DNA of 64,000 nucleotides. It comes from Thelephora terrestris. Taxonomy: Eukaryota; Basidiomycota; Agaricomycetes; Thelephorales; Thelephoraceae. The translations under genes were made by a program, and so were the position numbers. The DNA lies in contig WIUZ02000011.1 of NCBI GenBank assembly GCA_015956445.1, forward strand, positions 496,001 to 560,000. Reading direction: 5' to 3'. Below, piece by piece: positions 16,032 through 46,848 of this stretch (within the stretch, counting starts at the first letter, position 1; the number at the start of each line of letters is the position of its first letter). The notes beneath the pieces were generated by a model. That model was given only the letters and a program-made list of their open reading frames with translations, was not told where the DNA came from and made no database searches.

Positions 16032-19000
16032 TCAAAAAGCCGGAATTATCGTTTGAAACGATTGCAAACGCCCCTTCACCTGCATGATCCGTTCCCGCTT
16101 CTTCTGCAGGCTAGAGGTGACTTGATCCAGCGGGTTCGATTTACTGAGTTGTCCATCCAAGTTTTTAATGTACCCATCAACCACTCTGATGTACGATACC
16201 AAATGGTAGGGGTTCTCTCCTACTGCGATCCGTCGTGTTTCCTCCTCGAGCTGTGCCCGGACTTCCTGCGACAGGTCATGGTACATCACCCATAACATCG
16301 CAAGCCAATGGGACGGGTTTCCGTCATCCAGGAGCGAGTTGAGGAATGGGAAAATATTTGGATCTCTGAGGCACCTTTGAAGCGGGGGCGGATTTGCCAC
16401 CATGATGTAGGCGAAATGCTGAAGCAAGATCCACCGCTCCTTGGGTAGGTGCACCCGCAGACAGGGTAGGTGTGCAATGGCCAAGAGAACCTTGATGACG
16501 GCCTTCTCGACCGGGTGCGTATCCTTTTTGACCGGGTGCGTATCCTTTTTGACCGGGTGCGTATCCTTTTTGACCGGGTGCGTAGCCGCCTCGACCTTTT
16601 GGGTAGGGGTAGGATCCGGCAAGAACTCGCGTATGGCGGAGGACCACGCTTTAACGAAGCGTGAGGCTCTCTGCTCGTCTCCAAAGGCCTCTTCTGTGGT
16701 GAACAGATAGTTGTCCAACCTCGGGAGCAGGAAGATGGTCACTTTTCGTAGGTGGGTGGAATAATCGTTCTCCAGGGCCTCGATCGTTGTATCGATGAAC
16801 AGAGGGTCGGTGAAGTCGTAGGCAGCGAGCCCGCGTTTGGTGTCTTCGTCAGAAGCATTGACAAGGGCGAAAAAAGTGAGGTGGATAGGCTGGGTTCCAA
16901 TAGTTGCTCGTTCTCGCATGTGACGGTGTAGGCACTGCAGAAGTTGTTTGGGATCTCCAACCCGTGGCATATCAGTAGAAGCGCCTTGCAGGCAAAGCCG
17001 AGCGGATCGCCACATTTCCTCATCGTCGTTGGCGTGGTCCACGATGATTCGAAAGAGGGAATAGCTCCTCGCGCAGATTTTCGGGTTTCCCCGTGAATTA
17101 ATCACGAGCTCCAGTGCTTCGACGGCCGCAGATGAGGTAACGACGGAAGGAGTGGCTTGCCCGAAAACTCCGTCAAGTCGGTCGAAAATGTCATCGACGA
17201 TCTCCGTGATTTGGTGGCTAATTTATTTGTCAGTTAGGGCCGGTGAAAAGGTCATCGAAGGTCACCAACCTTCGGTCCTTCTCCAGGAGTTCCAGCGGAC
17301 TTGGTTCGTAACCAGCGACCATACGTATGATGAAGAGACAGTCGGCGATAACCCGGGCAGGGAGCTGGGGGCGGCTCAGTGATGCAGCCACAAACCCTCT
17401 CACATCATCTGTAAGCCTTTTCTGCTCTCTGTACAAGACATCAAAGGCACGATATTGAAGGATGTGGCCCAGCCAACATTGATGGGGTTCGGTGAGCTGG
17501 AGGCTGGCCCAGGGGATCGCAGTTTGAACACCAAAAGTCCAGTCGACGATGTAAAACGTGGACTGGAGGTCAAAATCCTGGTTAAACCCATCGTGCCCCA
17601 ATGGTTGGCTCAGGTGGTTTATGAATTTTAATTGGTGTGGAAGAGCTGTGTCGAGAGGATGGAGGCAACGTCGTTGGTTGTAAAGGTGCAACAGGGCCTT
17701 GGCGCTCCAGAATGCTCTGTCTCTCGCTCCCTGGCGCGGGTAGACCTTGCCTTCGGCAGAACACAAGAGTGACTCGCGCAATGCCTGGTAAACTTGTAGC
17801 AGCGGGACCGTCTTGAGACGGTGGTCCCAGACAATTTCTGTGATGTACACCATGATCACCTTGACGGATTCCGGAGCTCTTGTCATATCAAACATCGTCA
17901 AAATGCAAGACAGCTCTGCGCGGGGTTCTTCACATTGACCGTCGATCCCGGAGGCAATCTGGGGAGTAGGGAGTTGTTGGCGGGAGTCAAGGAGTCCCCT
18001 TTGCGATCCATCCGTAGCATCCGCGCATGGACGTTGTGCGTGGAGGTGCAGGAGGGCTCTTATACTTTCGTATGCCTGGGTCCGCATCCCTGGTCGGACA
18101 ATTCCGTCTGTCAGGAATTCAAACGGCTTGCGCAAGCAGTCATATATCTCGAAAAGGGGTACATTGCGGACGTTCGAGGGCCAGTTGATTTCCGGAATGA
18201 ATCGAGCCAGTGCAACGACAGCGTCCGACGTGCTGGCAGACTGAAAAATCGTTGAAATCCAGTTGGTGTCAGAGACACGCGCGCTTTCTGCCTCTTCCGG
18301 GATTGAGAAGGTTTCGACTGGGGTTTGAGGCGGTGGTGCAGGTTCTTCGTCGGTTGGCCTCGCAAGGGTTACTGTGGTAATTGATTGTTGGACCACCTCA
18401 GACAACCGATGTTGATGCTTCTTTACAAGGGAGATGGCATAGCGGAGGGCAACGGATACAGGCGACTGGAACGGGCATGTCTCCCAGATTACGGAGGCGA
18501 ACAATGTGAACAGGTAGAAGAGGACGCCGAAACCGGTGAAAGCGGCGATGACAGTCGAGACTGTCTGACTGAGACCCCACAGATATTGCGCCAGCGCGTA
18601 ACCAAGAAGGAGGACCGAGACTTGCATGACGAGGGGGATACAGTCCATGATGATCCTGAAGCGCCAAGTGGTCATCCCCCTGATTCTGAGTTCCCTCTGA
18701 TGGCCTCGTTCGACGAGAGATCCTTCGACGTGTGGATTGAGCCATTGTTTCCCAAGCATGGCTAGGAATGCGGCAAGCAGTGCGCTCGCCAAAGAGGCGA
18801 ACAAAATGCATTGGACCTGGATCGCGGAAGCGCTTGGACCTGACGGCACTGGAACGTTGGACTGATTCGGGATTCCCGAGGTGGCGTCGAGCAACATCTT
18901 GAGGACGGCGAAGCTCATCTCGTTGTAATCCGGCCGCAATTCCCGTTGGATGTCGATGACAAATGCCCCCACCACTGCTGAGAATAGACTGGCCTGGTTC

Positions 19001-19282
19001 TTTGTCAATCCCGAGATACAGTGCGATCGCATTGAACTCACGAATATCAGCGTGGCGTTGAGATCGTCGCAATGCTTGTTGCGGAGATCTTTTTCATACC
19101 CGTCTGCCTCTCCGTTAAACGTCTCGTAGAAGCGTCTGTGGGGATCTACCTCTGGTGGTTCGTTCGCAGCTGCGAGCCGCTCCAACACACGAAGAAGGGC
19201 GCGCAAGGTTTCATCTAGCCTAGGAACGATGTCATTACCACAGAGCTGGATATTACGGGACTAACCTGTCGGTTTCTGCCAT
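16032..19282 (-). CDS. DUF6535 membrane protein, subfamily A (gene 1)
   Basis: Four exons on the minus strand: 19266-19282 (17 nt), 19042-19219, 17270-18993 and 16032-17217. The frame closes to 1,034 residues. The N-terminal DUF6535 domain starts near residue 20 (FYETFNGEADGYEKDL) and has a hydrophobic segment at LFSAVVGAFVIDI. It continues with ILFASLASALLAAFLAMLGK, IPLVMQVSVLLLGYAL and VIAAFTGFGVLFYLFTLF, and closes with CPFQSPVSV. The long remainder is helical and cytosolic-looking. A THPVKKD run near residue 820 is a fourfold 21-bp tandem repeat. Function is unknown. The 48-nt intron 18994-19041 has no stop and is divisible by three, so retention would add 16 residues. The start at MAETD was chosen because the short exon 1 restores the family's start. 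Confidence 0.88.
16510..16584. repeat. 21-bp tandem repeat, about 3.6 copies, coding
   Basis: Copies begin at 16510, 16531, 16552 and 16573. Unit length 21 keeps frame and encodes THPVKKD on the minus strand inside DUF6535 gene 1. The copies are identical, implying recent expansion. Confidence 0.95.
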
Positions 19283-20739
19283 TTTCAGTAAGCTCAAACT
19301 TGAACCAGGGCACCAAGGAGTTCCTAACGAGCCGGATGCGTGAGTGAAGGGAGAGAGAGATCCACGAGGTGTGCCACTAGAGATAGGCAAGCTCAGTGCT
19401 CGAAGTTAAAAGGGAACACCGAAGGAAGTGAAGAACACAGGCGACATCTTATATCAAGCGAGAACAAAAGGGGAGCAAAGACAAGATGTGGGTGTCTCAG
19501 TGGTAGTGAACGCGAATCGGATAAAACAAGAGCGAATCGGAGTGAAGTGGGTCGATATTTGTCCAAAATCATGACACTTACTGGGAGGTGTGATTCAAGA
19601 AACGGAGGGCTGGCTAGCCAAGAACTGGATTGTTATCGCCTGTTCAGGTCCCCTTCATCGATCATTGAAACGTGTGGCGGGGTGGGGGTAATTTCACGAA
19701 ACCGAGGGAAGATCCGTAAGCCCAAAGGCCACTGCTGCGATAGGCACGTCCCAGGGCCAGCATGCCATTTGGTTCTGTTTGGGGTACATTACAGAACCTG
19801 TGACAACCAAGTGAGTATGGTTTTTGCAACACGGACCTCTGAAAACAGAGCAGTCGTTCGATAACCTCGTCCTCGTCGGCCAACGAGGGAAGTGGCTTGG
19901 GCCAAGGTTGTAAAAGGGAAGCTTAAGGGCCCCATCCACAGTTTTCTTGGTATGCTTCTGGTCCGACTACGTGCGTATGTTCATGTTTTGTGCAAGCAAG
20001 GTTTCCGCCGACTGCGAAGTCGGCATTTGCCTATACGTAGTGACGAAACGTTCACGTTCACGATACGATCACCCTCAACTTGCAATTGAAGGTTCCCATA
20101 AATCCCATTTTCGGAGAGCCCAATGGCGTCTCATTATTTGACAATGTGGCATTTTAGCTGAACATGCTCGGCTGGAGGGTAGTGGGCTCATGTTTAAGAA
20201 CATGAAAGAAGGGGGCGACGATCAGTGCAACGGAGGCAGCGAAGAATCCCAGCCTACCGAGTTTCCAATGACCTCCGTGACAGAAATTTTCTGACAACAT
20301 CCTCCGACTAAGCAACAAACGGTGCCGGGAGCCTCACCATCGAATTCATGGACTTCCCATTAAGGATTCCATTCCCGTTCGACGTTCCTTGGCTCCGGAA
20401 ACGGAATGAGCTGACGGTCCCGGAGGTTGTGTCGCTCTTCAAGGTGGTTGGCGCGACTCGTAGAATGATGAGAGATGGTGTGATGACGTGGTGATCATGG
20501 TTAGACAGCGACGCCCAAGGTTGCAGGCCACCGGGGAAAGGCAAGAACAGGACGAACCTGAATCGCGCCGGGGGGCTTTGGAGACCATGGGTACAACCCA
20601 GCTATCGACAGCCCAGGTACAATACATAGTTGAAAAGCAATAAGTAGTACAACGAGCATAGGACACCAGCGTCGCAACGGTACGTTGTTAAGTTTCTTGC
20701 AAACTGGCAGCCACACCCAGTCGGAACTTTTGAAGCATC
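19283..20739. other. spacer between gene 1 and the conserved gene at 20.7 kb
   Basis: It holds the promoter of DUF6535 gene 1 on its left and repeat copy 2 at 20102-20208. Its right part, about 20313-20490, has a weak plus-strand frame (FMDFPLRIPFPFDVPWLRK...) without clear ends. No known gene recognised. Confidence 0.4.
20102..20208 (+). repeat. dispersed repeat, copy 2 (copy 1 at 13902-14008)
   Basis: Direct, diverged partner of 13902-14008. A further short match just upstream (GTGACGAAACGTTCA, 20040-20054) is shared with 3154-3168, linking three repeat-bearing spots in the window. Confidence 0.7.
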
Positions 20740-24498: not shown

Positions 24499-24947
24499 AC
24501 TTAGCGACAAGATATGTATGGTCCGCTCAGTAGCAATTGTATATCTTGTTGAGATCAAGGGAACGGGATTGTACGGAATACGCGCCCTCTCAGACTCAGA
24601 GCGGTATGAGACATCTTGTATGTACAGAGTACTTGCCGCACATTGGCGCGCCTCTCACCGCAGGGAATGGATCACAATGGGGCGGTAAAGCGGCGCTCAT
24701 TGTAAAACCTCCAGCTTCAGTGTTGGTGAACCGATGGCCACATGCGGGTTTAAGTTATGACAGTGCGGTAAGGGCCGTCCTAGGCGGCCGTGGAAGTGGC
24801 CGCGTGGTGGCGGGCCGGCGGCGCGCGATTCAAACGTGTTCTATTAACGTGTTTACCGCGCGTCCCCACTCTCGGTGGACTGCTTTGAACCCACGTTGTA
24901 GGTGCCCTAAGCTCACCTGCTCCCATAACGCCCAAAGTACTTACCAA
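24499..24947. other. spacer: RPN12 3' region and DUF6535 gene 2 promoter
   Basis: No gene. The last ~130 bp resemble the region before gene 4 (a run with AAACG...CGCG..CCCACT), suggesting the duplications carried promoter sequence. Confidence 0.4.
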
Positions 24948-27900
24948 ATGCTCACCGGCACCACGGATGCAACCATCGGTGACCCACCGAAACCAGAGAC
25001 CGAAGTAGAGGTGCTGTCGAGGTTAGTCTGGCGTTTACCAGCACTATCTCCATCTCATTGCAGTAGGCTCATCGCGGATGCGCTCAAACTCACCGTTTCT
25101 GAGCTTCGGGGAGATGACGAGATGAAGATGGCTCGGTACGCCTGCACGTATGTCACTCTCATGGTGGTGCACACTGACCCCCATACGTTATAGGTTCGCT
25201 ACCACCTTTCAAGAGGGATTCGCGGCGTTTCGTGAAGACGAAGAAAACCGGATTGCTCGGTTAGTCTTTCCAAAGCTTGTCACAAACATCGTTAGGACTA
25301 AAGATCCGTGTCACTTCGTTAATCCTCAGATTGGAAAGTGCGATCAAGGAGTTGAAAACCACTCCGACCGATATCGATCCCGCGACCAACTTTTGGACCG
25401 TCTACAAGACAGTCGCTGACGAACATGACGGTGACATGCTCGATAAATACTCTGAAGACTTGGACGCATCCCTGCTATTTGTGAGCACTTTCACCTGCAT
25501 TGTGCGTCTCGCGTTCACTCAGCTTTCATGATGTTAGGCGGGTCTGTTCTCCGCTGTCTCCACAGCTTTCATTATTCAAATCCTTCCATCGCTTCAGTCA
25601 AACCCCTCTGACCTCACCAACGTCCTACTGCTTCGGCTATTGCAACAAAACAATTCGTTCGGTGGATCCGACCCGCTGGCACCCGTCATGAATGTTTCCT
25701 CCAGTGTTGTCAGAGCCCAGTCAATCCTCTTCGCAAGTCTGTCTGTCACTTTATTCGTGGCCTTCATCGCGGTGTTGGGCAAGCAATGGATCCTCTATTA
25801 TAAACGGGCCTCGACCTGGGGGAGCATTGTCGATCGAGGGAAGGAACGCCAGGTCAAATTCGTGGGACTTCGGAAATGGGGACTACACTTCATCATGGAG
25901 TTGCTACCCGTTTTGTTGCAACTCGCGTTCCTCCTTTTCGGCATCGGCCTTATCGTATATCTTTGGAGCATCGACATCTCCGCTGCGGAGGTGATCCTGG
26001 TGGTCACTTGCTTTGGTTGCGCGTTTTACGCATGTATAGCCGTGGCTGCGACGATCAGGAGCGATTGCCCATTCCAGACGCCCTTATCCATTTTACTCCC
26101 GAAGATTTTACCCTGGATGAAGCAGTTTTTCGCACATGTCCGTGTTTGGCTGAGCCAATGGCTCACCGCGGTTCTACTGCGGATCGGACCGGTGGAAGGG
26201 CACAGTTACCTCGTGGCTTCAATCGCAAGTTTGTGCAAGACATTCGGTGCGAAGGTTACCCCAGACGAAGTCGTCGAAACCGTTTACGACAGGAGCTATT
26301 CCATGAAGCTTTCGAACCCCGCGTTTTGGAGGAAAGATCCGCTTTTCACTTCCCCTCTCCCGGAGGGTACTGCCGCCTCTGCGGGTTTCTGGTTGTTAGA
26401 AAACTCTACCGATTTTTCAGCCGCCACCGCAGTTGCCGCGGTGTTTTCTGAATTCCAGTGGCCATCTCACCGTCACTCCGCAACCGCGTTGATTCGACTC
26501 CGTGACACATACATGGAGTGTTTTCGAGCGCCCGAGTTCAACCGATCCGTTAGGCTGGAGGCTCTGCAGTCCGCCGCCGCTTATTACATCCTGTACCACA
26601 CGCGGCTCATATGGAGTATCTCAAAGGGTGGCGAGGTCGAGGTAGAGAAACTCCCTTCTGATTTGCTTCCCGATCTCCTCCTCCTCCACAAAGACAGCGA
26701 CAAATGGGACAGACACGATCTATTCGAGTACCTTTTCCGTATCGAAGACCGCTTAGCACCCGTGGAATCGGCGCGATTCTTATCCTACATCGCTCCCTAC
26801 TGGTTTTGCGGAGACTCGGATTCCGCCATCAGGTTTCGATCGAGCCGTTTGCAACCCTTGGAAGAGTTCATCGCTATGTTGGAAAGCTCCAAGGCGCTGG
26901 TCCCAGCGATTCTTACGGATTGTGTGCTTTGTGTAGGAGCCGCGATGGACTTTCCCTTGCATCCGGAGGATCTCATTCGGGTTGACAAGAGGTATGTTCT
27001 GTTCCTCGATACGATAAGAGCGATATTGATTGAGAATAGTGCTTATCTTGCTCCGACCTTCAAATTGGTGGTTGAGCATATTCATAATATCGTCCTGGCT
27101 AGTAGCCGTCGCCATCACCATGCCGTACAAGCGCTGGAAATACTCCTCACCCTCGTCGGGCATACGAGTCTTCCGCTCGTCGACGCCTCGTGGATAAACG
27201 ACCTTCTAAAACGTCTCGCGGAGGGTGAGATGACCGACAGACAGTTTTCCTTGTTCCTCAGGCTCAGCGCGCGGAGAACGGAAGAGGATGCCACGGTCGA
27301 CGCTGAATTAGGAGATTTTGTGCTCATCCAAGGTTTCGGAGCCGACCCGCACTCTCTCGGGAGAACCATGACCTCACAAGCTCCCACCTCGGACGATGTG
27401 CTTTTCGGGAAGATTATGAAGAACATACGGACCTGTGTCGAAGGCGCCGATGGCTGGAGGGACGAAGCCATTTACGGTGGCCTCATCGCGATCAGAGATA
27501 TCCGCCGACTGGATCCTTCCCTCTTTGACGACGACACCCTCCAGACGTTCCATGATGCAATGAACCATGGCAATCCCTTCCGCGTCAGGCAAGCAGCGTA
27601 CGACGTCATGCTGGTCACGCAAGATCAATGGCTCAAGTCTGAGCGGTTACGCAAGAAGCTCGAAGACCTCAACTTCTTCAGACAAATGCACCGCGTCGTC
27701 GTCGAAATGGCCCGCCCCGACTACCAGCGATCGTTCCTTATGATGATGGACGTTCTATCGGAGGACGTCCACTGGCATTTGTACCTCAGAGAGGCCATGG
27801 AAACTTGGCTCCGTCTCCGGCACGAGGGGCAGAGGCACGCCCTCCACATACTTGATAACATTGGTGGGCTTTTGCTCCCAAGGAGGGACGGTTACAGCGC

Positions 27901-28204
27901 TTCTTCTTTCGACGACCTTTTACAAAAACTGGTGGTGGACGAGTGGACTGCGGTCCCGGGGCGCCAAGTGCAAGATCTCAGCGCTGATCGGCTGAGACCA
28001 CTCGTGGAGGTCACGGAGCGGTTCAAGGAATTGTTGTTCAACGATACCTATCGGAAAGCGGCTCTAAGCGCGGTTCAAGGTGCTATGCAGGATTTGGAGC
28101 GGCGGAGTGAGGATGGTTGTCCAGGGGAAGGTGTTCGTGGTATGGTGAACGATCTTCTGGCACAACTTCGGTTACCACCCAAACGTCGATTCTCTTACGA
28201 TTAA
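24948..28204 (+). CDS. DUF6535 membrane protein, subfamily B (gene 2)
   Basis: Exons 24948-25021, 25064-25135, 25194-25259, 25330-25480 and 25538-28204 close to 1,009 residues. The DUF6535 domain spans roughly residues 90-310. It has FWTVYKTVADEHDGDML, then the intron-split LLF/AGLFSAVSTAFIIQI, a membrane helix ILFASLSVTLFVAFIAVLGK, a helix LLPVLLQLAFLLFGIGLIVY, a helix VILVVTCFGCAFYACIAVAA, and the closing CPFQTPLSILL. The ~700 residues after it are helix-rich with a HEAT/ARM-like look (inference). Landmarks there are WFCGDSDSAIRFRSSRL, VLCVGAAMDFPLHPEDL, LSARRTEEDA, GNPFRVRQAAYDVMLVTQD and RSFLMMMDVLSEDVHW. Function is unknown. It is most similar to gene 3. Confidence 0.9.
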
Positions 28205-30635: not shown

Positions 30636-33600
30636 ATGCTCACCGGCACCACAGACCCAACATTCGATGACCCTTTAAGTCAAGACGACGAAGTAGAGCC
30701 GCTACCAGCCAAACCTGCGTCATGTTGTAGTAGGTTCGTCGCGGATTCGCCCCAATCCGGCGTCTGCGAACTTCGGGAAGACGAGGAGATAAGGCCGTCT
30801 AAGTACGTCCAGAGGTAACCCTCGGGATAACGCGCACTCACTTGCGTTATCACTATAGGCTCTCCACCACCCTTCATGAAGAATTTGCAGCGTTTCGTAG
30901 AGCCGAGGAGGACCGTATCACTCGGTCAGTCGCCCTACGACCCGCAACGAGCCTTGTTGGGACTAAAGACCGGCGTTCCGCCTCAGGTTGGAGAAGGCGA
31001 TCGAAGAGCTGAAAGTCACAACTAATACTCCGACCGATATTGATCCTGCGACCAACTTTTGGGCCGTCTACAAGAAAGTCGCTGACGAACACGACGATGA
31101 CATGCTCAACAAATATGCCGGTGACCTGGACACATCCCTGCTATTTGTGAGCACGTTCACTTCCCATCAGGTTGCACGTCTTTGTCCTCTCAACCCCGTT
31201 CTTGTCTCGTGTTAGGCGGGTCTGTTCTCCGCAGTCTCCACGGCTTTCATTGTCCAGATCATGGCATCGATTCAGCCAAACCCCTCAGATCTCACCAACG
31301 TCCTACTGCTTCGACTATTGCAACACAACGATTCATTCGGTGGATCCAACCCGCTGGCACCCGCCACGAATATTCCCTCCAGTCTGGTCAGAGCTCAGTC
31401 AACTCTCTTCGCAAGTCTATCTGTCACTTTATTCGTGGCCTTTATTGCGGTGTTGGGCAAGCAATGGATCCTGTATTATAAGCGGGCCTCGACGTGGGGG
31501 AGCATTGTCGATCGAGGGAAGGAACGCCAGGTCAAATTTGTGGGACTTCGGAAATGGGGGCTACACTTCATCATGGAGTTCCTACCCGTTTTGTTGCAAC
31601 TCGCATTCCTCCTTTTTGGCATCGGCCTTATCGTATATATCTGGAATATCGACCTCTCCGCTGCAGAGGTGATGCTGATGGTCACTTGCGCCGGCTGCGC
31701 GTTTTACGCCTGTATAGCCGTGGCCGCGACGATCAGGAGCGATTGCCCATTTCAGACGCCCTTGTCCATTTTGCTCCCGAAGATTCTACCATGGACGAGG
31801 GAGTTCTTCGCACACGTTCGTGTTCGGCTGGGGCGATGGTTCACCGCGCTCCTATTGCGGATCGAGCGGGTGGAAGGGCACGTTCGGATGGTGACTCTAA
31901 TCGGACGTTTGTGCAAGACCTTCGGTGGGAAAACCACCACAGGTAAAGTCATCGAAACCGTTTACGACAAACACTACTCCATGAAGCTTTCGAACCCCGC
32001 GTTTTGGAGGCAAGATCCGCTTTTTACTTCCCCTCTTCCAGAGGGCACAGCCGCCTCTGCAGGGTTCTGGCTATTGGAGAACTCAACAGACTTTTCCGCC
32101 GCCACCGCCGCCGCCGCCGCATTTCCTCACTTCCAGTGGCCATCCAATCATCACTCCACTACCGCGCTTATTCGACTCCGGGACGCGTACACTGAGTGCT
32201 TTCGAGCGCCTGTATTTGGCAGATCCGCTCGCCTTAAGGCTCTGCAGTGCGCTTCCGCTTACTACGTCCTATACCACGCTTGGCTCCTTTGGAACACATC
32301 AAATAGCTGCGAGGCTGAGGGAGATAAACTTCCTTCTGACTTACCGCTTGATCTCCTCCTCCTTCACAAAGACAGCGAAGAGTGGCGCGGATACGACCTA
32401 TTTGAATACCTTCTCCGCGCCGAGGATCGCTCAGTACCCGTGACATCCGCTCGGTTCTTATCTTACATCGCCCCCTACTGGTTTTGCGGCGACTCGGATT
32501 CTGCCCTTAGATTTCGGTCGAGTCGTTTGCATACCTTGTGCGAACTCATCGCCGTGTTGGAAACTTCCAAAGCGCTGGTCCCTGCGACCCTTACGGATTG
32601 TCTGCTCTGTGTAGGGGCCGCGATGGACTTTCCCTTGCATCCCGAGGATCTCATCCGGGTTGACAAAAGGTATGTTCTGCGCCTTGGTACGTCATACGTG
32701 GTATTGATTGGGGGCAGCGATTACCTTGTTCCAACCTTCAGAATGGTGGTTGAGCATATTCACGACATCGTCTTGGCTGGCAGTCGTCGCCATCGCCATG
32801 CCGCACAAGCGCTGGAGATCCTCCTCATCCTCGTCAAACATACAACCGTTCCACTTGTCGATTCTGCGTGGATAAACGTGCTGCTGAAACGTGTCGCAGA
32901 GGTTGGCATGGTGGGTGACAAGGCCGATGAAGAGTTTACCTTGCTTCTCCGGCTCAGCGCGCGGAGAACCGAAGAAGATGCCACGGTCGACACGGAGTTG
33001 GGGGGCTTTGTCCTTGTCCAAGGTTTTGGAACAGACCCTCAGTTCCTCGGAACTGCCATTACATCAGCAATTCCCACCGCAGACGATACATTATTCAGAA
33101 AGGTTATGAAGAACATTCGGGTTTGCGTCGAACGGGACTACGACTGGCAGGACGATGCCGTTTATGGCGGCCTCGTCGCGATCAGAGATATCCATCGACT
33201 GGAGCCTTCCCTTTTTGACGACGAGACCCTCCAGACGTTGTACGATGCGATGAACCCGGGCAATCCCTTCCGCGTTAGGCAAGCCGCCTACGATGTTATG
33301 CTGGTCACTCGTGATCAGTGGTTCAAGTCGCAGATGTTACGTCAAAGGCTCGAAGACTTTGGGTTCTTCAAGCAATTGCACTGCGTCGCTGTGGAAACGG
33401 CGCGTTCCGACTACCACCAATCGTTCCTTATGATGATGGGGATCCTATCGGAGGACGTGTACTGGCATTCGTACCTCAGGGAGGCGATGGATCTTTGGCT
33501 GCCTCTCCGTCACGGTGGACCGGATCATGTCATTCGCATACTGGTCAACGTTGGCGGGCTGTTGCTCCCACAATGTGGTGACGGTTACACTTTCCCTTCC

Positions 33601-33903
33601 TTCGACGAGTTTTTGCAGAAAGTGGTGGTGGATGAGTGGGTGGCAGTCCCGGCACGCCCTGTGCACGATCTCACCGCCGATCGGCTGAAGCCGCTCGCGG
33701 AGGTTACGAAGCAGTTCAAGGAGCTGTTGTTCGACGGCGATCACCGGAGGGCAACTCTCGCCGCGGTTCAACAGGTTATCCCTGGTTTGGCGCAGCGACG
33801 CGATAATGGTTATCAGGGACCGGGAGAAGACGTTTGTAATATTGTGGAGGATCTTGTGGCGGAACTGCAGTTGCCGCCCAAGCGTAGATACACTTACGAT
33901 TGA
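30636..33903 (+). CDS. DUF6535 membrane protein, subfamily B (gene 3)
   Basis: Exons 30636-30802, 30859-30924, 30987-31146 and 31216-33903, 1,026 residues. Domain order and motifs match gene 2: FWAVYKKVADEHDDDML, AGLFSAVSTAFIVQI, VTLFVAFIAVLGKQW, CPFQTPLSILL, WFCGDSDSALRFRSSRL, GAAMDFPLHPEDL, NPFRVRQAAYDVMLVTRD. Compared with gene 2, the first intron has no donor left. The old acceptor region TGTTGTAG reads as coding, so exons 1 and 2 are fused and about 14 former intron residues (PAKPASCC...) are translated. Intron 30925-30986 must be removed because retention breaks the frame. It is a tandem duplicate of gene 2. Confidence 0.9.
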
Positions 33904-34635: not shown

Positions 34636-37600
34636 ATGCTCGCCGGCACTACAGACGCAACCGTCGGCGGCCCTTCAAAACAAGAGGAAAGGTGAGTACG
34701 ACGTTTACTGGCCAGACTTACGTCTTATCGTGGCAGGCTCCTTGTAGATTCGCCCAAACCCGACGTTTCCGAGCTCCCGGGAGACGATAGGACGGAGCTG
34801 CCGAGGTGCGCCCACACGTAACTCTCGGGGTGGCACGCACTGACCCGTCGCCATCGTACTAGGCTCACTCCCACCCTCGACGAACAACTTGCGGCGATCC
34901 GTAGAGACGAAGAGAATCGTTTTACTCGGTTAGCCTTCCCGAAGTTTACCACAAAGCTTATGAGCACTAACGGCCTCAGGTTGGAGAAGGCGATCAGGGA
35001 GTTGAAACCCGCTCCGATCAACAGAGTCGACCCCACGAAAAACTTTTGGACCGTCTACAACCAAGTTGCTGACGAACATGACAATGACCTGCTCAAGAAA
35101 TATTCCGGAGATCTGGACACATCCCTATTATTTGTGAGCGCGCTCACGTCTCTTGCACGTCTGGCACTAAACCCCGTTCTTTCCTGCGTTAGGCGGGTTT
35201 GTTCTCTGCCGTTGCCACAACTTTCATTGCCCAAATCCTTCCATCGCTCCAGTCAAATAGTGGTGGATCATCGTCAAGTACCGGCTCCACCAGTGTTCCC
35301 TCCACTAGGGTCGTCAGGGCTAGTAGTTCGATTCTCTTCGCCAGTTTGGCGGTCACATTATTCGTGGCCTTCATCGCGGTATTGGGGAAACAGTGGATCC
35401 TCCACTACACACGTGCCTCGACGTGGGGGAGCGTCATCGATCGAGGGAAGGAACGCCAGGTGAAGTTCGTGGGACTTCAGAAGTGGGGGCTGCACTTTAT
35501 CATGGAGGCGCTACCCGTTTTATTGCAATTTGCACTCCTCCTTTTCAACATCGGCCTTATCGTCTATCTCTGGGATCTCGACCGTTCGGCTGCAGACGTA
35601 TTACTGGCCGTCACTTGCACCGGCTTCGCGTTTTACGCAGGCATAGCCGTGCTTGCGACAACCTGGGAAGATTGTCCGTTCCAGACACCTTTGTCCCTTG
35701 TGCTTCTGAGGCTCCTGCCCTGGGTGAAGGAAATCAAGACGCGCGTCCAAGCTCGAGCATGGCTGAGGCGACTTTACGCTGCGCTCTCACAGCCGAAACG
35801 GGTTGAAGGGGACGATCACCAGATGACCCCAATCGGCGAAGAAACCACCACAGCTCAACTCTTAGGGAATGTCCGCGAGGATAGTACCCAAGATGACGCT
35901 TACATGAAGCTTTCGAACCCTGTGTTCTGGAGGACAGATCCACTTTTCACTCCCCCTCTTACGATAGATACCGCCGCCGCCGCAGGGTTTTGGTTGATAG
36001 AGAACTCTACCGATTTTTCTGCCGCCGCCGCCGTCGCCGGAGCGTTTCCTGAATTCCAGTGGCCGTCCCATCATCACTCCATCAAAGCGCTGATCCGACT
36101 CCGCGACACGTACACCGAATGTTTTCGAGCGCCGAAGTTGGACAAACCCGCCCGCCTTGAGGCCCTACAATCCGCTGCCGCCTACTACGTCCTCTACCAC
36201 GCTTGGCTCCTTTGGAGCGAATCAAATAGCGGCGAGGTTGAAGTAGAGAAACCTCCTTCTGACTTACCTCTTGATCTCCTCCTTCTCCACAAAGACAGCG
36301 ATGAGTGGCACGGCTACGACCTGTTTGAATATCTTCAACTCCATGTTGAGGATCGCTCAGTACCCGTGACATCGGCGGAATTCTTATCCTACATTGCTCC
36401 ATACTGGTTTTGCGGAGACTCCGATTCTACCGTCAGGTTTCGATCGGGTCGTTTGCAGAGCTTGGAAGGACTTATCACTGTCTTGAAAAGCTCCAAGGCG
36501 CTGGTTCCGACGACCCTCACGAGTTGCGTGCTCTGTGTAGGGGCCGCGATGGACTTTCCCTTGCATCCAGAGGATCTCATTCGGGTTGATAAAAGGTGTG
36601 TCCTGCTCCTCGACACGTTGAGAGTGGTATTGATTGGAGATAGCAAGTTTCTTGTCTCGACATTCAAGATGGTGGTCGAGCATATCCACAACGTTGTCCT
36701 GAATCGTGGTCGTCGGTATCGCCATGCTGCGGAAGCACTGGAAATCCTCCTCACCCTCACGTTCGGACACACAACCCTTCCGCTCGTCGATGCCGCATGG
36801 ATAGACGAGCTCCTGAAACTTGCAGCCGATGGTGACATGCGTGATGAAGTTTTCACCCTGTTCCTACAGCTCAGCGCACGGAGAACGGAAGGGGGTGCCT
36901 CGGTCGACCCCGTCCAACCTCTCAAGCAAGATCCACAGTCTCTCGGAAGAACCGCGACATCGGAAACTCGTACCCCGGATGACACACTTTTTAGCAAGGT
37001 TGTTGCTAATATACAGACCCATGACTGGGAGGACCCCGCCGTTTCCGGTGGTCTGCTTGCGATCAGAAACATTCGCCAACTGGAACCTTCCCTCCTCAAC
37101 GACGACACTCTCCAGACGTTTTATGATGCGATGAATCGTGACAACCCCTTCCGCGTTAGGCAAGCAGCCTACGACGTCATGGTGGTCACTCAAAATCAGT
37201 GGCTCGAGTTGGAGAGGTTACGCCCAAAACTCGAAGACCTCGACTTCTTCAGGCAAATGTATCACGTAGTCTTCGACATGGCTCGTCCCGACTACCAGAA
37301 ATCGTTCCTTGCGATGATGGACGACCTATCGAAGGAAGTCTACTGGCACCCGTACCTTAGGAAGGCCATGGACATCTGGCTGCCGTTCCGCCGCGAGGGA
37401 TGGTCACAAATCTTCAACATCATTGAAAACGTGGGCGGATTGCCACCTGCAAAACGGGACGATCGCAGCTTCTCTTCCCTCAACGATTACTTACAGCAGC
37501 TAATAGTGGACGGGTGGAGGGCGGTTCCGGGACGTCCCGTGCACGATCTCACCGCCGCTCGGCTGAAACCGCTCGCGGAGGTCACGGGGCGGTTCTACTT

Positions 37601-37775
37601 ATTTGATGACGCGCACCGGAAGGAGGTTCTGACCGAGGTCGAACGAGTTATTGACCTTTTGGGGCGACGACATGATAATGGCTACGACGGTCCAGGACAA
37701 GATGTTGTTGCGATTGTCGATGATCTTCTTAAGAAACTACGTTCACCGCTCATACGTAAACCCACTGACGATTGA
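34636..37775 (+). CDS. DUF6535 membrane protein, subfamily B (gene 4)
   Basis: Exons 34636-34691, 34737-34805, 34863-34928, 34980-35133 and 35193-37775, 975 residues. It has the DUF6535 hallmarks FWTVYNQVADEHDNDLL, AGLFSAVATTFIAQI, VTLFVAFIAVLGKQW, LPVLLQFALLLFNIGLIVYL and CPFQTPLSLVLL. The C-terminal motifs are WFCGDSDSTVRFRSGRL, GAAMDFPLHPEDL, LSARRTEGGA, NPFRVRQAAYDVMVVTQN and KSFLAMMDDLSKEVYWHPYL. The third intron (34929-34979) is 51 nt with no stop, so both spliced and retained forms are in frame. This gene is the source of the duplicated block that produced gene 5. Confidence 0.9.
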
Positions 37776-38356
37776 TAGATCGAATCCCCCACCTTCATCA
37801 TAGGTTGTATAATGTAGAGATTCACACTGTTTGCTGATAATGTAATGAAATCGAGATCAATGGTCATGCGATACGGGGTGCTTTCGCCAGCGCAATCCAT
37901 ACTACTGTTCCGGGGGATGGTGTTTTCGATCCCCTCTCAATGAATGTTTGGTCGGACTCTTGGAAGATGAGTGAGCCACGGTACTAGGACCTCACGCCCA
38001 TTCTCTTCCCACAAGGCCGCTCGCGAATGTCGCGGAACAGGAGTTTAAGAGACGATTACTCAACGAAAATGACCAGAGGGCAGTCTGCGCCGTCACCGAA
38101 CGAGTTATTCCGCCTTTGGGGAAGCGACGTGACGGTGATTACGATGAATTGGGAGAAGTTTTTTGCAAAACGTTGGTATATCCTTGTAGAAAAGTCACAG
38201 TTGTCATCGTCCAGACGTCGATCCACGTATAAATTCATAGACTTGGTCATTTTTTACCGTACACAAACTACACGCATGTACGGTTGTTGTGACGACATCT
38301 GTGGTTTTTAGCAAGAGGAAGCGGCCACCGCTGGAGGAAACGGTGATGACGGTCAC
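34651..38356 (+). repeat. segmental duplication, copy 1 (copy 2 at 43737-47406)
   Basis: Begins in exon 1 of gene 4, just after its start codon, covers the rest of the gene, and runs ~580 bp past the stop codon. The high similarity to 43737-47406 continues outside the gene (for example TCAATGAATGTTTGGTCGGA and GTGACGACATCTGTGGTTTT), then stops at GATGACGGTCAC. Confidence 0.9.
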
Positions 38357-38493: not shown

Positions 38494-41220
38494 ATGGTGG
38501 AGGGGACCGTTAACCAAAAGGCACACGCGGAAGCAACCATCGACCCAAAATCGTGAGTTCAAACCTCCTGACCCCGGCTGTTTGTTGACTGCGTTTTTCG
38601 CTGCCAGTTTGGAGGATGCCATGCACAATGCACTGAGGAATTACTTTCCCTCTCTCGAACCAAGCAGCGACGCCCGCGCCGAGTTTTACAATAAATTCAA
38701 ACGCGAAGCTGATGAATACGACAATGACTTTTTGAAGAAACATGGCGGAGACTTGGATATCACCTTGATCTTCGTGAGCCTTTCCATTTCTTTTCTATCC
38801 ACTTCGGCGGTGATGTTAAACTGCCTTTTGGGGGATAGGCGGGTTTGTTCTCCGCGGTCGCGTCCGCTTTCATCATCCCCATCCAGGCTCAGCTTCAACC
38901 GGATTACACTCAATTGAGCTACGATCTCCTCTGGATGACGGCCAATTCCACCGGCATGAACCCCCCGCCTAAGCCCAGTAGCGATTCCCCGTGGACTGGC
39001 CCAAATCCCACCCTCGTCCACGTTCAAGCCATCCTCTTCTCAAGCTTGGCCGTTTCCCTCCTCGCCGCGTTTGTCGCTATGCTGGGCAAGCAGTGGCTCA
39101 ACCGATACTCTCGGGCCGATATTCGTGGATCTCCTACTGTTCGCAGTCGAGATCGACAGCGCAAGATGGATGGGATGGCTACTTGGCGCTTCAAGTTCGT
39201 CATGGAGAGTCTGCCCATGATGCTCCAGGCCGCTCTTCTTCTTCTCGGTTGCGCCCTCTCCAAATACCTCTTTATCATCGACAATCTGGTTGCCTGGGTT
39301 GTCGTCGGTTTCACCGCATCCGGTTTACTCTTCTACTTGCTCATCGTCGTTGCTGCCACCATATCGTACGAGTCCCCATTCCAGACCCCCCTCTCCCTTA
39401 TCATTCGCTCCATGGTTTGCCTCTCAAGGAGCGCATTGGATAAACTTAACATGTGGCTTCACCGCACGTTTTCTCGAGGGCAGCGGAGGCAAACACCCCG
39501 TCCTTCAACCGGTTCTGGCAGGCCCGACGGGAACAACGGTAATGGACACACCGAGTTGCCTGCCGACCCACCTCATCTCCCATCTGTGCTCTTAACCGAT
39601 AGGGATGGCTACGTGCTGGATTCCAAGTGTATCGCCTGGATGTTCGAAATGTCCATGGATCCGGACGTCATCCTGTATATCATGAAATTCATCCCCGAGA
39701 TCATTTGGCACGACGGTATCCAGAACACTCCGTTAAAAGAACTCTACGAGAACGTCCTCCAATGCCTCGATTATTCGTCTGGAAGTCCGATCGTTGTTCC
39801 CAAGTTCAGGAGCAAGGTCTACCACAGTGCCAGGGCCCTCGTCCACCTCGCTATTCAGCGCAAGTGCTATGGATCCGACAGGAAATTGTTTGACGCCATC
39901 TCACCCCAGCACCGGATCATCGGATCCGGACACTACAAGGGAGACTCAGACCTCGAATATACTCTGGGCATGATAGATTGCGTTTTTGGCGGCGGTTATC
40001 ACGGACCGATGTGCTGGGATAGATTCTCCTTCACTAATCCTCACCATGCTTGGATGAGTCACATCCTCTTATACCGTGCATGCGACGCCTTCAGGGAAAA
40101 CCGTACTTTGACCGATGACATTGAGGAGTTCGTCAAGCATTCCCTCCAGCTGGTCCCTCTACCCGATCCACCGATCATATTGAACTGCCTGCTGATCATT
40201 GGCCTCGCCCTCGACATCCAATTGGACAGCGATGAACAGCATGTTGACAATAGGTTAGTGGATTCTGCACGAGTTACTCCAGATAAGGCTTGATCGTCTT
40301 GTCGCAGTCGAAAGTATTACTCTCAAATCAAGAAAATTCACACGAAACTTCTTGAGACATTCGAGAACGTCAGATCTACCTTCCTTCAAGTCGACCGCGC
40401 CTTTCAAATCATGAACCATATCGCTCCACTCTCCGAGAATTCCATGGCCACGGAGAGTTATGAACTCTTCTGCGCCATCATGCGGGCTCCTCTCTCTCCT
40501 GCCCACCTCAATGAGAAGTGGAAGGCGTCTCGTCTCGCCTTGCACTGGGCTTACAAGTGGGACGAGGGGTTGCCGCAGGTCGAGGCCCCTGAAGCGATCC
40601 TCGATTTCCTAAGCCACCACTTTGAGTTGGCTAACAAAGGCGATGTCCAGGACGAGGCAATTCAGAATGCTCTATGCGCACTGGCTTATGCCTCCACTGA
40701 CAAGTCCATTGAGACCCTCAAGGTTGGATCGATCAAACCCGTTTTTGTCCCCGGCATCTGCTTCGCGTTTCAGTGCACCCGGCCCCGCGAACTTCGCAAG
40801 GCTGCTCTCTTTTTCCTTCCTCTCATTGCCAACAACTGGTTCAATGATTCTGGCTCAACCATGACGCCCGAAGAGATGAAGAGTTTGTGCCAAGATTTAG
40901 CCTCAACTGTCGACGAAGTCTGGGACACCGACCATATCCAGAAGCCAGCTCATGCGGTTCTCCTTGGCATGATCGAATCCCCTCACTGGCGTCCCCACAT
41001 CGACCCGGATAACGCAGCGATAATCAAGGAAATTTCGACCATGGGAAACCCAGATGGTGCAACCCTTCGGTCAGCAATCTCATGGTTGAAACGTAACAAG
41101 CCGGGGGAAGAGGTTCAGAGGCAGTTGGAGTTGGAGGTGGCCACACGTAACGAAGGTCACTCGAGGGAAGGCCATCGGTGCATACCTGCCAGTGATGGAG
41201 TCGGAGCCGGAGGAAGTTGA
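38494..41220 (+). CDS. DUF6535 membrane protein, subfamily A (gene 6)
   Basis: Exons 38494-38552, 38608-38773, 38839-40253 and 40308-41220, 850 residues. Domain: FYNKFKREADEYDNDFLKK, LIF/AGLFSAVASAFIIPI, a helix ILFSSLAVSLLAAFVAMLGK, a helix LPMMLQAALLLLGCAL, a helix VVVGFTASGLLFYLLIVVAA, and FQTPLSLII. It shares its intron positions and text (ATWRFKFVMES, AMLGKQWLN) with gene 1 rather than with its neighbours, so two subfamilies are interleaved in the array. The C-terminal region has CIAWMFEMSMDPDVILYIMK and LDIQLDSDEQHVDNR, the latter next to intron 3 as in gene 1. The last ~40 residues are unlike the family, so the end is less certain. Confidence 0.88.
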
Positions 41221-42077: not shown

Positions 42078-43692
42078 ATGGCCCCCAAGCGTCCGCCACA
42101 CTGGGACCTATACCGGGAGTAAGTTCGAGCATTGTTTCCACTCAAACTCGACGCCGACCTGTCTCAGCCAAATGTCTCTGTTTGACAACGGACATGCCTT
42201 ATGGTCCGTTGCCCAGTTTTTCCTTTTATGTTCTATCTGAGAGTATGTAATTACCAGGCAGACCATCCCGGTTGCAGACTCCAAACGCATTCAACCAGGA
42301 GACGTGGGTTACGTTCGCAAAGGCCGTTTCCATTTGCTGTTCTCTGCTAGCCTCTCGCCCGACAAAGCATGCGATGCCCCTCAGCCGTTTAAGATACTCA
42401 CTGTTAGGAGGATCGTATGTGACCAACCCCTACCAGCATGTCCCCTCAACACAGCAACCGTCCGAGTAATCGGAGAGCGTCTTATACCCATACAATCTCC
42501 AACTCCAGCATCTTCACCACCCTTGTCTTCTCCGTATGTCCATCCTGTTTTCTTCTTTGCCTCCAACACCTCAGACCTAGACTCTAGGACGACTGGATCC
42601 GCTTCCTGTACTTCGTTCCAACTCAAAGGGGGGGAAGGCGCCCTCCTTCTGACTAAGTATCCAACGTACAGAGAGGATGTGGAACTAGAGGGCGACTTTA
42701 AAGAATATACAAGAAAAAACTACGACTCTTGGGTGGAGTTCGCCCGCCAGAACGGTCACGGCGGCGGCGGCGACCTCAATCCAGTCCTCGTCACCGGTGT
42801 CGACAGGACCAGGGATTTCGTGATGCTGTGTTATTCAAAGGACGACGACGACGTCGTGGATTGCGAGTTCACCACTCCCATTCCCGGGGTCACCGATTAT
42901 GGGAAATGGAACAAACCGGGATTGGTACATACGAATCACAGTCCCCAGACGCTACGCCGCCCCCTTCCCACGGACCCAACACAAGTCACAGACCCGACAC
43001 TAGCCATGGACCCGACATCCTCTGGCAACAACGATCCGGAAACTATTTCGGATCAGCATGTCTTCATCCGGTACTTTACCGTACGGAAAAGGTTCTGGGT
43101 CCCTAGGGTCATAAAAGCCTCCGCAGGTCCACATGAGCTCGATGGAGGAGGGTATGATAGTGACGGGTCGCCTCTCGAGGCGCCCTGTGGCTCAGACCCG
43201 GATCCGGATCCGGCAACCCCGCCTAGTTTGTCTGATGGTGATGGGTGCCCAGCCATCAGCCTCGATACTGAATCTGACGTTGTGGTGCACAACATCAGGG
43301 CTGTGGGTTGTTTTTCTCGTTTCCCGCCCGTCCGTTCTGATCGGCCCCCTCTAGGGTGGAAGGGATGATTTTGATGTAATCGCGGATTATGTTTTCCAGG
43401 TGCGTTGGAAACGACGGTGTCAAAAATGTCGAGGCATCCCAAATTCTCCGATTCTAGAATTCCAATGCAGAGTCTGTGCTTCTTCATCATAAAGACATCG
43501 CACTGCTCCGCAAGGTGAGGCGCGTAACCACAGGAAGTCCCCCTTACTCAACTTTGCACGCAGCTTGGAAGCAGTACAGACTTGTCCACTCTGGTGTTTG
43601 AGATGCGACCACGGATCGTTGTGGATACAGACGGTGGTCTGTTCTTTTTTTATTGTGTGGGCAGGTCATTCGGTAGCTCACACTCTGAATAG
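42078..43692 (+). CDS. Agaricomycete-specific hypothetical protein
   Basis: Exons 42078-42118, 42168-42215, 42258-43302, 43355-43399, 43458-43514 and 43564-43692 close to 454 residues. I recall uncharacterised mushroom-forming-fungus proteins with the same blocks, present here as IQPGDVGYVRKGRFHLLFSA, ALLLTKYPTYREDVELEGDF, NYDSWVEFARQNGHG, PVLVTGVDRTRDFVMLCYS, KPGLVHTN, QHVFIRYFTVRKRFWVPRVI, SAGPHELDGG, DDFDVIADYVFQNSNAESVL and HHKDIALLRK. Function is unknown. The last exon is least secure: it could end at TAG 43690-43692 or splice again within 43636-43664. It lies 45 bp upstream of the edge of the segmental duplication, so its terminator region may have been replaced. Confidence 0.75.
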
Positions 43693-43736
43693 TTGGAACA
43701 ATCGAGCCCAAGACGGATCTTTCAGCAGGAACGTCC

Positions 43737-46700
43737 ACAGACGCAAACATCGGCGGCCCTCCAAAACAAGAGAAAAGGTTAGTACGATGGTTACTAGCCA
43801 GACTTGCGTCTTATCGTGGCAGGCTCCTTGCATATTCGCCCAAACCCAAAGTTCTCAAGCTTCCGGAAGATGATGGGACGGGGCTGCCGAAGTGCGCCCA
43901 CACGTAACTCACGGGGTGGCACGCACTGACACATCGCCATCGTACTAGACTCACTCCCACCCTCGAGGAAGAATCTGTGGCGTTCCGTAGAGACGAAGAG
44001 GATCGTTTTACTCGGTTAGCCTTCCCGATGTTTACCACAAAGCTTATGAGCACTAAAGGCCTCAGGTTGGAGAAGGCGATCAGGGAGTTGAAACCCGCTC
44101 CGATCAACATTGACCCCACGAAAAACTTTTGGACCATCTACAACCAAGTCGCTGACGAACATGACAACAACCTGCTCAAGAAATATTCCGGAGATCTGGA
44201 CACATCCCTATTATTTGTGAGCGCGCTCACGTCTCTTGCACGTCTGGTATCAAACCCGATTCTTTCCTGCATAGGCGACTTTGTTCTTTGCCGTCGACAC
44301 AACTATCATTTTCCAAACCCTTCCATCGCATACCGGTGGATCCAGTACTCCCTTTAATCTCGTCCCATTTAAGGTCGTCAGAGCTCGTTCGATTTTCTTC
44401 GCCAGTTTGGCGGTCACATCATTCGTGGCCTTCATCGCGTTATTGGGGAAACAATGGATCCTCCACTACACACGTGTCTCGACGTGGGGGAGCATCATCG
44501 ATCGAGGGAAGGAACGCCAGGTGAAGTTCGTGGGACTTCAGAAGTGGGGGCTGCACTTTATCATGGAGGCGCTACCCGTTTTATTGCAACTTGCACTCCT
44601 CCTTCTCAACATCGGCCTTATCGTCTATTTCTGGGATCTCGATCGTTCGGCCGCAGATGTATTACTGGCCGTCACTTGCACAGGCTTCGCGTTTTACGTC
44701 GGCATGGCTGTGCTTGCAACAATCTGGAAAGATTGTCCGTTCCAGACACCTTTGTCCCTCGTGCTTCTGAGGCTCTTGCCCTGGGTGAAGGAGATCAAGA
44801 CGCGCGTTCAACCTCGAGCATGGCTGAGGCGACTTTACGCTGCGCTCTTACAGCCGAAACGGGTTGAAGGGGACGGTCGCCAGATGACTCCAATCGGACC
44901 TTCGCACAGGGCCTCAATCGGCGAGGAAACCACCACATTTCAACTCGTAGGGAATGTCCGCGAGAAGAGTATCCACAACGACGCTTACATGAGGCTTTCG
45001 AACCCTGTGTTCTGGAGGACAGATCCACTTTTCACTCCCCCTCTTACACTGGATACCGCCGCCGCTGCAGGGTTCTGGTTGATAGAGAACTCTACCGATT
45101 TTTCTGCCGCCGCCGCTGTTGCCGCCGCTTTCCCCGAATTCCAGTGGCCGGTCCATCACCACTCTATTAAAGCATTGATTCGACTCCGCGACACGTACAC
45201 CGAATGTTTTCGAGCGCCGAAGGTCGACGAACCCGCCCGTCTCCAGGCCCTACAATCCGCTGCCGCTTACTACGTCCTCTACCACGCTTGGCTCCTTTGG
45301 AGCGAATCAAATAGCGGCGAGGTTGAAGTAGAGAAACCTCCTTCTGACTTACCTCTTGATCTCCTCCTCCTCCACAAAGACAGCGATGAGTGGCACGGCT
45401 GCGACCTGTTCGAATATCTTCTCCGCGCCCATGATCGCTCAGTACCCGTGAAATCGGCGGAATTCTTATCCTACATTGCTCCCTACTGGTGTTGCGGAGA
45501 CTCCGATTCTACCGTCAGGTTTCGATCGGGTCATTTGCAGAGCTTAGACGAACTTATCACCGTCCTGGAAGTCTCCAAGGCGCTGATTCCGACGACCCTC
45601 ACGAATTGCGTGCTCTGTGTAGGGGCCGCGATGGACTTTCCCTTGCATCCAGAAGATCTCATCCGGGTTGATAAAAGGTGTGTCCTGCTCCTCGACACGT
45701 TGAGAGTGGTATTGATTGGAGATAGCAAGTATCTTGTCTCGACATTCAAGATGGCGGTCGAGCATATCCACTACGTTGTCCTGAATCGTGGTCGTCGGTA
45801 TCGCCATGCTGCGGAAGCACTGGAAATTCTCCTCACCCTCGTCGGACACACAACCCTTCCGCTCGTCGATGCCGCATGGATAGACGAGCTCCTGAAACTT
45901 GCAGCCGACGGTGACATGGCTGATGAAGTTTTCACCCTGTTCCTAGAGCTCAGCGCACGGAGGGACTCGGTCGACCCCGTCCAACCTCTCAAGCAAGATC
46001 CACAGTCTCTCGGAAGAACCGCCACATCGGAAACTCATACCCCGGATGACACACTTTTTAGCAAGGTTGTTGATAATATACAGACCCGTGACTGGGAGGA
46101 CCCCGCCGTTTCCGGTGGTCTGCTTGCGATCAGAAACATTCGCCAACTGGAACCTTCCCTCCTCAACGACGACACTCTCCAGACGTTTTATGATGCGATG
46201 AATCGTGACAACCCCTTCCGCGTTAGGCAAGCAGCCTACGACGTCATGGTGGTCACTCAAAATCAGTGGCTCGAGTTGGAGAGGTTACGCCCAAAACTCG
46301 AAGACCTCGACTTCTTCAGGCAAATGTATCACGTCGTCGACGACACGAATCTTTCCGACTACCAGCGATCGTTCCTCACGATGATGGAAGTCCTATCGAA
46401 GGAAGTCTACTGGCATCCGTACCTTAGGAAGGCCATGGACATTTGGCTGCCGTTCCGCCGCGAGGGATGGTCACAAATCTTCAACATCATTGAAAACGTG
46501 GGCGGATTGCCATCTGGAAAGCGGGCAGATCACAGCTCCTCTTCCCTCGACGATTCCTTACAGCAGCTAATAGTGGACGGGTGGAGGGAGGCTTCGGGAA
46601 GTCTCGTGCCACGTGGCATCTTTGACACCAATTTCCTCAAACCACTCGCGGAGGTCACGGAACGGTTCAACTTGTTCGACGACGGGCACCGGGAAGAGGT

Positions 46701-46848
46701 TCTGACCGAGGTCGAAAACGTTATTTACGCTTTGGGGCGGCGAGAAGATTATGGCTTCGAGAGTCCACCAAAAGATGTTGTTGCGATTGTCGATGCTCTT
46801 CAGGAGAAACTACGTTCACCGCCCAAACGTAAACCTACTGACGATTGA
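43737..46848 (+). pseudogene. DUF6535 subfamily B (gene 5), start codon lost by duplication
   Basis: Near-copy of gene 4. Homologous exons are 43737-43777, 43823-43891, 43949-44014, 44066-44216 and 44275-46848. All splice sites are present, and the large exon is open for 857 codons. Motifs are intact: FWTIYNQVADEHDNNLL, ATLFFAVDTTIIFQT, VTSFVAFIALLGKQW, CPFQTPLSLVLL, GAAMDFPLHPEDL, NPFRVRQAAYDVMVVTQN. However, similarity to gene 4 begins just inside exon 1. The ATG is absent, and upstream the frame meets a TGA near 43683 with no ATG in between. It is either an unexpressed recent pseudogene or uses an upstream exon I cannot see. Reading-frame preservation means loss of function, if real, is recent. 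Confidence 0.8.

What the first reader, a model, noticed from the sequence alone, without database searches (positions are those of the whole stretch)
16032..46848. Six-gene DUF6535 array made of two interleaved subfamilies
Six large membrane proteins of one uncharacterised family lie within 31 kb, and a seventh decayed tail lies at 1.7-2.1 kb. Subfamily A (genes 1 and 6) and subfamily B (genes 2, 3, 4, 5) differ in intron number and C-terminal region. All share the N-terminal four-helix domain and the intron splitting LF/AGLFSAV. In subfamily B, ~700 helix-rich residues follow the membrane domain and contain strings conserved across paralogs (GAAMDFPLHPEDL, NPFRVRQAAYDVM). This is the best candidate for an undescribed system: a fast-duplicating membrane-anchored helical-repeat family.
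Basis: partly seen in the sequence, partly recalled or inferred. Interest (0 to 1): 0.8.

Follow-up and report, generated by a model that had tools for sequence, protein, structure and literature searches.

The report
Duplicated fungal DUF6535 membrane-protein gene array
A stretch of fungal DNA holds six related genes for large membrane-anchored proteins of a known but almost unstudied family, which appear to have multiplied by ordinary duplication; the array is real, but what the proteins do is still unknown.

Summary
The array is real: six DUF6535 (Pfam PF20153) genes at 16032-46848 plus three decayed tails. In map order they are A, B, B, B, A, B, so subfamily A is genes 1 and 5, not 1 and 6. 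All share four membrane-type helices, an intron in the L-x-F|A motif and one conserved hydrophobic helix in the C-terminal part; A and B are probably distant, collinear relatives. The four B genes show purifying selection (pairwise dN/dS 0.29-0.54). Gene 6 is a 5'-truncated copy of gene 4: it lost that gene's start codon, kept its frame and evolves faster. Best reading: N-in/C-in membrane anchors with a cytosolic all-helical domain, maintained by birth-and-death duplication. HEAT/ARM is not shown: no Pfam repeat hit, a sequence repeat in one of six proteins only, a failed whole-exon model (pLDDT 42), and a 270-residue model (pLDDT 68) that is all-helical but has no Foldseek match at E <= 0.001. 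The family is known to Pfam; one paper in the searched library names it, in a table. Partner and function are open. Interest is modest.

The parts
16032..19282 (-). Gene 1 (subfamily A), exons 19266-19282, 19042-19219, 17270-18993, 16032-17217; 1034 aa
   Evidence: Model, tail intron; PF20153 E 1.3e-33
24948..28204 (+). Gene 2 (subfamily B), exons 24948-25021, 25067-25135, 25194-25259, 25330-25480, 25538-28204; 1008 aa
   Evidence: PF20153 E 5.1e-37. First intron uncertain: a read-through model also fits
30636..33903 (+). Gene 3 (subfamily B), exons 30636-30802, 30859-30924, 30987-31146, 31216-33903; 1026 aa
   Evidence: PF20153 E 2.4e-36. 5' exon borders have alternatives
34636..37775 (+). 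Gene 4 (subfamily B), exons 34636-34691, 34737-34805, 34863-34928, 34980-35133, 35193-37775; 975 aa
   Evidence: PF20153 E 1.3e-27
38494..41220 (+). Gene 5 (subfamily A), exons 38494-38552, 38608-38773, 38839-40253, 40308-41220; 850 aa
   Evidence: PF20153 E 2.2e-33
43737..46848 (+). Gene 6 (subfamily B), 5'-truncated copy of gene 4; exons recognised by homology at 43823-43891, 43949-44014, 44066-44216, 44275-46848; start codon not identified
   Evidence: PF20153 E 2e-20
1811..2057 (-). Decayed tail of an A-type gene, in two frames
   Evidence: tblastn with gene 1, E 2.4e-22
37906..38166 (+). Decayed B-type C-terminal tail directly behind gene 4
   Evidence: tblastn with gene 3 residues 918-1005, 36.7%, E 1.4e-7
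46998..47171 (+). Copy of that relic behind gene 6 (95% identical DNA)
   Evidence: Repeat family D15
34651..38356 (+). Source of the segmental duplication that gave gene 6 (homologous to 43737-47406, in pieces)
   Evidence: blastn 89.7% over 3482 columns for 34651-38078, further pieces to 38356; repeats D9, D10, D15, D19

Best explanation
The array is a birth-and-death cluster of DUF6535 genes. Each product is most likely an integral membrane protein with a short acidic cytosolic N-terminus, four transmembrane helices (N-in, C-in) and a cytosolic, all-helical C-terminal region of about 590-790 residues that binds a partner, so that the protein acts as a membrane-tethered docking scaffold. Shown here: the six genes and their relatedness, four hydrophobic segments, duplication of gene 4 into gene 6, purifying selection in the B genes. 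Inferred: topology, cytosolic side, the all-helical fold. Not shown: the partner and the process it serves.
For: DUF6535 in all six. Hydropathy gives at least four peaks in the domain of each; in genes 1-3 the loop between helices 2 and 3 has 7, 9 and 9 K+R against 3, 2 and 2 in the first loop, and the first loop carries N-x-S/T sequons in genes 1, 2, 3 and 5. The C-terminal 270 residues of gene 2 are predicted all-helical, pLDDT 67.6. dN/dS for the six B pairs: 0.29, 0.29, 0.31, 0.31, 0.32, 0.54. Gene 4 and 6 exon 5: 8 of 8 indels are multiples of three, against 2 of 8 gaps in the 3' flank; with 90-120 random substitutions a stop-free exon is expected in 4.2-1.8% of 2000 simulations each. 79 of 83 informative silent sites support the pairing (2,3)(4,6).
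Against: The N-terminal flank is acidic, so the topology rests on loop 2; the script split the loops wrongly in genes 4-6 and those were read by eye from its output. A fifth hydrophobic helix in the C-terminal part (mean hydropathy 1.38-1.87, above 1.5 in 3 of 6) might also enter the membrane. The model of gene 2's whole main exon failed, pLDDT 42.2. Nothing here shows a partner, a localisation or expression.
Confidence: 0.45

Rival explanations
1. The array is an allorecognition or innate-immunity cluster: the helical region senses a non-self ligand and the membrane domain executes or signals, in the manner of NLR/HeLo or gasdermin systems of ascomycetes.
For: Multi-copy cluster with relics and a recent duplicate evolving faster in amino acids (47 against 20 changes, p 0.0013 with gene 2 as outgroup); membrane domain plus helical region recalls sensor-executor layouts described in reviews of which passages were seen (PMC10197012; PMC12881547).
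Against: Purifying selection in all six B pairs with no segment clearly above 1; no NLR, NACHT, HeLo, gasdermin or TIR family among the Pfam hits of the tested ORFs; no PADLOC family at E <= 0.1 (a prokaryotic library); no strain data.
Confidence: 0.15
2. The C-terminal region is a HEAT/ARM-type solenoid acting in trafficking, like adaptor or retromer-type helical scaffolds.
For: Regular helices in the 270-residue model; the 50 listed Foldseek matches of 584 include armadillo proteins, importin alpha, VPS35, SARM1 ARM and designed helical repeats.
Against: Best Foldseek E 0.024, none at or below 0.001, TM-scores 0.08-0.39 in the listed rows; 14-3-3 and designed bundles are listed too. No HEAT/ARM Pfam hit. 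Five of six proteins have no internal sequence repeat above shuffles.
Confidence: 0.25
3. Much of the array is drifting dead weight: surplus copies of a family held by a few functional genes elsewhere.
For: Three relics; gene 6 lacks gene 4's start codon and 5' flank.
Against: Open frames over 850-1034 residues in genes 1-5, dN/dS about 0.3, frame-preserving indels even in gene 6.
Confidence: 0.12

Closest known systems
DUF6535 (Pfam PF20153, InterPro IPR045338)
   Same: All six main exons match above Pfam's cut-off of 23.9 bits (73.8-127.9 bits).
   Different: The Pfam model covers about 177 positions (membrane domain); the 590-790-residue C-terminal part has no Pfam family.
NLR/HeLo and gasdermin cell-death systems of fungi
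   Same: Possible logic only: membrane-active part plus large sensing part, multi-copy genes.
   Different: No family match in the tested ORFs; four stable-looking hydrophobic helices rather than an amphipathic N-terminal helix (inference).
ARM/HEAT solenoid proteins
   Same: All-helical C-terminal model; such proteins appear among weak Foldseek matches.
   Different: No significant fold or sequence match.

Membership tests
DUF6535 (PF20153) | Match above the curated cut-off | tested here: met
   6 of 6 genes, 73.8-127.9 bits against 23.9
DUF6535 (PF20153) | Four hydrophobic helices in the domain | tested here: met
ARM/HEAT repeat proteins | Family match or internal repeats of about 40 residues | tested here: not met
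   No Pfam match; only gene 1 has an internal repeat, one duplication of about 105 residues (score 138, highest of 40 shuffles 52)
ARM/HEAT repeat proteins | Solenoid fold | tested here: inconclusive
   270-residue model at pLDDT 67.6; no Foldseek match at E <= 0.001 of 584 at E <= 10
Fungal NLR / HeLo / gasdermin systems | NACHT/NB-ARC, HeLo/HELL or gasdermin domain in the genes or neighbours | tested here: not met
   None among the Pfam hits of the ORFs tested; these were unspliced ORFs of 150 aa or more, so small or split genes could be missed
Allorecognition genes | Balanced polymorphism among strains, incompatibility phenotype | not testable with these tools
   No genome is held for the window, no strain data

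The most novel reading that the evidence does not exclude
DUF6535 proteins are a basidiomycete class of membrane-tethered helical receptors for non-self or stress signals, built unlike NLRs: the sensor is fused to a four-helix membrane anchor, and the repertoire is renewed by duplications in which truncated copies such as gene 6 take over new 5' ends.
Probability: 0.08. Interest if true: 0.7.

Novelty: new member of a known kind. Interest (0 to 1): 0.3.

Why it matters
A multi-copy family of proteins of about 1000 residues has no studied function in the papers found. The array gives clean gene models, a family-wide conserved hydrophobic helix outside the Pfam domain, and a dated-by-divergence duplicate pair (genes 4 and 6) for testing function. 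If the receptor reading were true it would supply candidates for recognition genes in basidiomycetes, whose somatic incompatibility is described as poorly understood (abstract start of PMC8229728 in the listing).

Tried and rejected
Whole-genome search: no genome is held for this window, so copy number elsewhere was not measured. Relatives: two scans of viral contigs (80 and 38 pattern matches) and one of prokaryote genome contigs (34 pattern matches) gave no relative by tblastn; no positive control was run, and no collection of fungal genomes was on hand. Solved structures by sequence: nothing at E <= 1 for the B main exon; best 0.41, 0.25 and 0.52 for the C-terminal B part, the A tail and the membrane domain, taken as chance. 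NCBIfam and PADLOC: no hit at E <= 0.1. VIA-align was not available.

Gene conversion: run tests on silent sites were not significant for any of six B pairs (p 0.11-0.99); genes 2 and 3 are more alike at silent sites in the membrane domain (34 of 52 against 70 of 165, Fisher p 0.004, uncorrected, one region chosen after seeing the windows). Not claimed.

Profile comparison of A and B C-termini was weak: global hhalign failed (E 0.87), local matches E 0.021, 0.025 and 0.57. Pairwise: 0, 2, 6, 8, 10 and 13 of 200 shuffles reached the score for the six A-B pairs tried; gene 6 was not tried. Homology of the C-termini is therefore called probable, not proven.

Literature: DUF6535, PF20153 and IPR045338 gave one paper, seen as one table passage: one Flammulina velutipes transcript isoform, FPKM 0.00 at 10,000 ppm CO2 against 81.14 at 1000 ppm. 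Five wider searches listed no paper on this family.

Assembly artefact: genes 4 and 6 differ by about 9% in exon 5, with different 5' flanks and a unique gene between them, which speaks against a collapsed haplotype, but reads were not available.

Full report
What is there. Six genes with a DUF6535 domain lie between 16032 and 46848. Gene 1 is on the minus strand, genes 2-6 on the plus strand. Gene models with GT-AG introns of 42-70 bases give proteins of 1034, 1008, 1026, 975 and 850 residues for genes 1-5; gene 6 is open for 907 residues from its fourth exon on, but its start was not found. Alternative 5' models exist for genes 2-4 (6, 6 and 10 models), and for gene 6 the search returned 7125 possible models, which is no evidence for any one.

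Subfamilies. Genes 2, 3, 4 and 6 form B (61.9-86.6% identity), genes 1 and 5 form A (34.4%), and A-B identity is 21.3-26.9% over the alignable length; in the membrane domain alone genes 5 and 1 are 43% and 36% identical to gene 2. A and B C-termini look unlike at first sight but show weak collinear matches and share, at corresponding places, a hydrophobic helix with a D/S/N-C-V/L-L/F core (19-residue mean hydropathy 1.38-1.87).

How the array grew. A stretch of 34651-38356 reappears at 43737-47406, about 9.1 kb further on. The copy begins inside gene 4's first exon: upstream flanks are 42.3% identical, which is no homology, and gene 4's ATG has no counterpart. It carried along a decayed B-type tail that already stood behind gene 4 (37906-38166). 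Exon 5 of the pair is 91.4% identical, introns 92.4%, 3' flank 83.1%. Gene 6 has nevertheless kept an open frame: 8 of 8 indels in exon 5 are multiples of three, and simulated neutral drift leaves exon 5 without a stop in 12.4, 4.2, 1.8, 0.9 and 0.3% of 2000 trials at 60, 90, 120, 150 and 180 substitutions; the pair differs at 218 of 2544 compared sites, of which about half should lie on the gene 6 branch. Gene 6 has changed faster in amino acids than gene 4 (47 against 20, 44 against 22, 36 against 15 with gene 2, gene 3 or both as outgroup; p 0.0013, 0.0092, 0.0046), but not in synonymous codons (16 against 19, 21 against 19, 13 against 14). So gene 6 is neither a plain pseudogene nor an unchanged copy: relaxed constraint or a new role, with a 5' end that must come from new sequence if it is expressed.

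Selection. Nei-Gojobori dN/dS over the six B pairs is 0.29-0.32 for five and 0.54 for genes 4 and 6. This is purifying selection on average. A window of genes 4 and 6 reaches dN 0.046 with dS 0.031, but on 1.5 synonymous changes, so it shows nothing. There is no sign here of an arms race, which weakens but does not exclude a recognition role.

Protein anatomy. At least four hydrophobic segments lie in the DUF6535 region of all six. In gene 2 they are 118-136, 183-201, 242-260 and 272-290; the first loop has 2 K+R and two N-x-S/T sites, the second 9 K+R, the third none. By the positive-inside rule (established knowledge) this gives N-in/C-in, with the large C-terminal part in the cytosol. AlphaFold2 with four sequences failed on the whole main exon of gene 2 (pLDDT 42.2, pTM 0.28). 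On its last 270 residues it gave pLDDT 67.6 and pTM 0.52, but for the best of five models only, the others lying at 45.7-51.9; the model has 13 helices of four or more residues and no strand. Foldseek found 584 matches at E <= 10 and none at E <= 0.001; the best (E 0.024) is a designed protein, and the 50 listed are a mix of designed helical repeats, armadillo proteins, 14-3-3 and others. An all-helical domain is thus likely, a HEAT/ARM fold open. Sequence repeats: gene 1 holds one duplicated unit of about 105 residues (score 138, shuffles at most 52); in genes 2-6 6, 40, 22, 13 and 37 of 40 shuffles reached the best self-match.

Surroundings. To the right stand genes with orotidine-5'-phosphate decarboxylase, ubiquitin-activating E1, CCDC47 and PX/DUF3818 domains; to the left a Plavaka transposase ORF. 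With DUF6535 this suggests an agaricomycete fungus (recalled knowledge of where these families occur; no taxonomic test was possible).

Literature. One paper in the library names DUF6535, in a table (passage): a Flammulina velutipes transcript isoform lower under high CO2. That is the only expression datum found. The statement that the function is unstudied is limited to these searches.

Verdict. A real, well-formed gene array of a known Pfam family without known function. The best-supported mechanism is a membrane-tethered helical docking protein, with birth-and-death evolution; the partner is unknown.

Noticed in passing
6764-7972 and 11629-12612, flanked by 3193-3279 and 13645-13731: A Plavaka transposase ORF (PF18759, E 3.4e-20) and an ORF that ends in three tandem 28-residue copies resembling a histone H2B helix (histone family E 4.5e-5, 24.1 bits, below the cut-off of 26.4) lie between 87-base inverted repeats of 99% complementarity. 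Whether these are the element's ends was not tested; the sequences just outside differ.
   Followed up: partly
42241-43368: An ORF of 375 codons between genes 5 and 6, without Pfam match or second copy in the window. Gene 6's truncated 5' end lies 0.4 kb behind it.
   Followed up: partly
16502-16584: A near-perfect tandem repeat in gene 1 coding for repeated DTHPVKK units.
   Followed up: no
15241-15527: A 116-base inverted repeat, 80% complementary, 55 bases between the arms, just behind gene 1.
   Followed up: no
13908-14007 and 20109-20208: A dispersed non-coding repeat of 100 bases, 82% identical, on either side of gene 1.
   Followed up: no
24057-24533: Sub-cutoff match to CSN8/PSMD8/eIF3K (E 0.002, 18.5 bits against 23.7) directly upstream of gene 2.
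   Followed up: no
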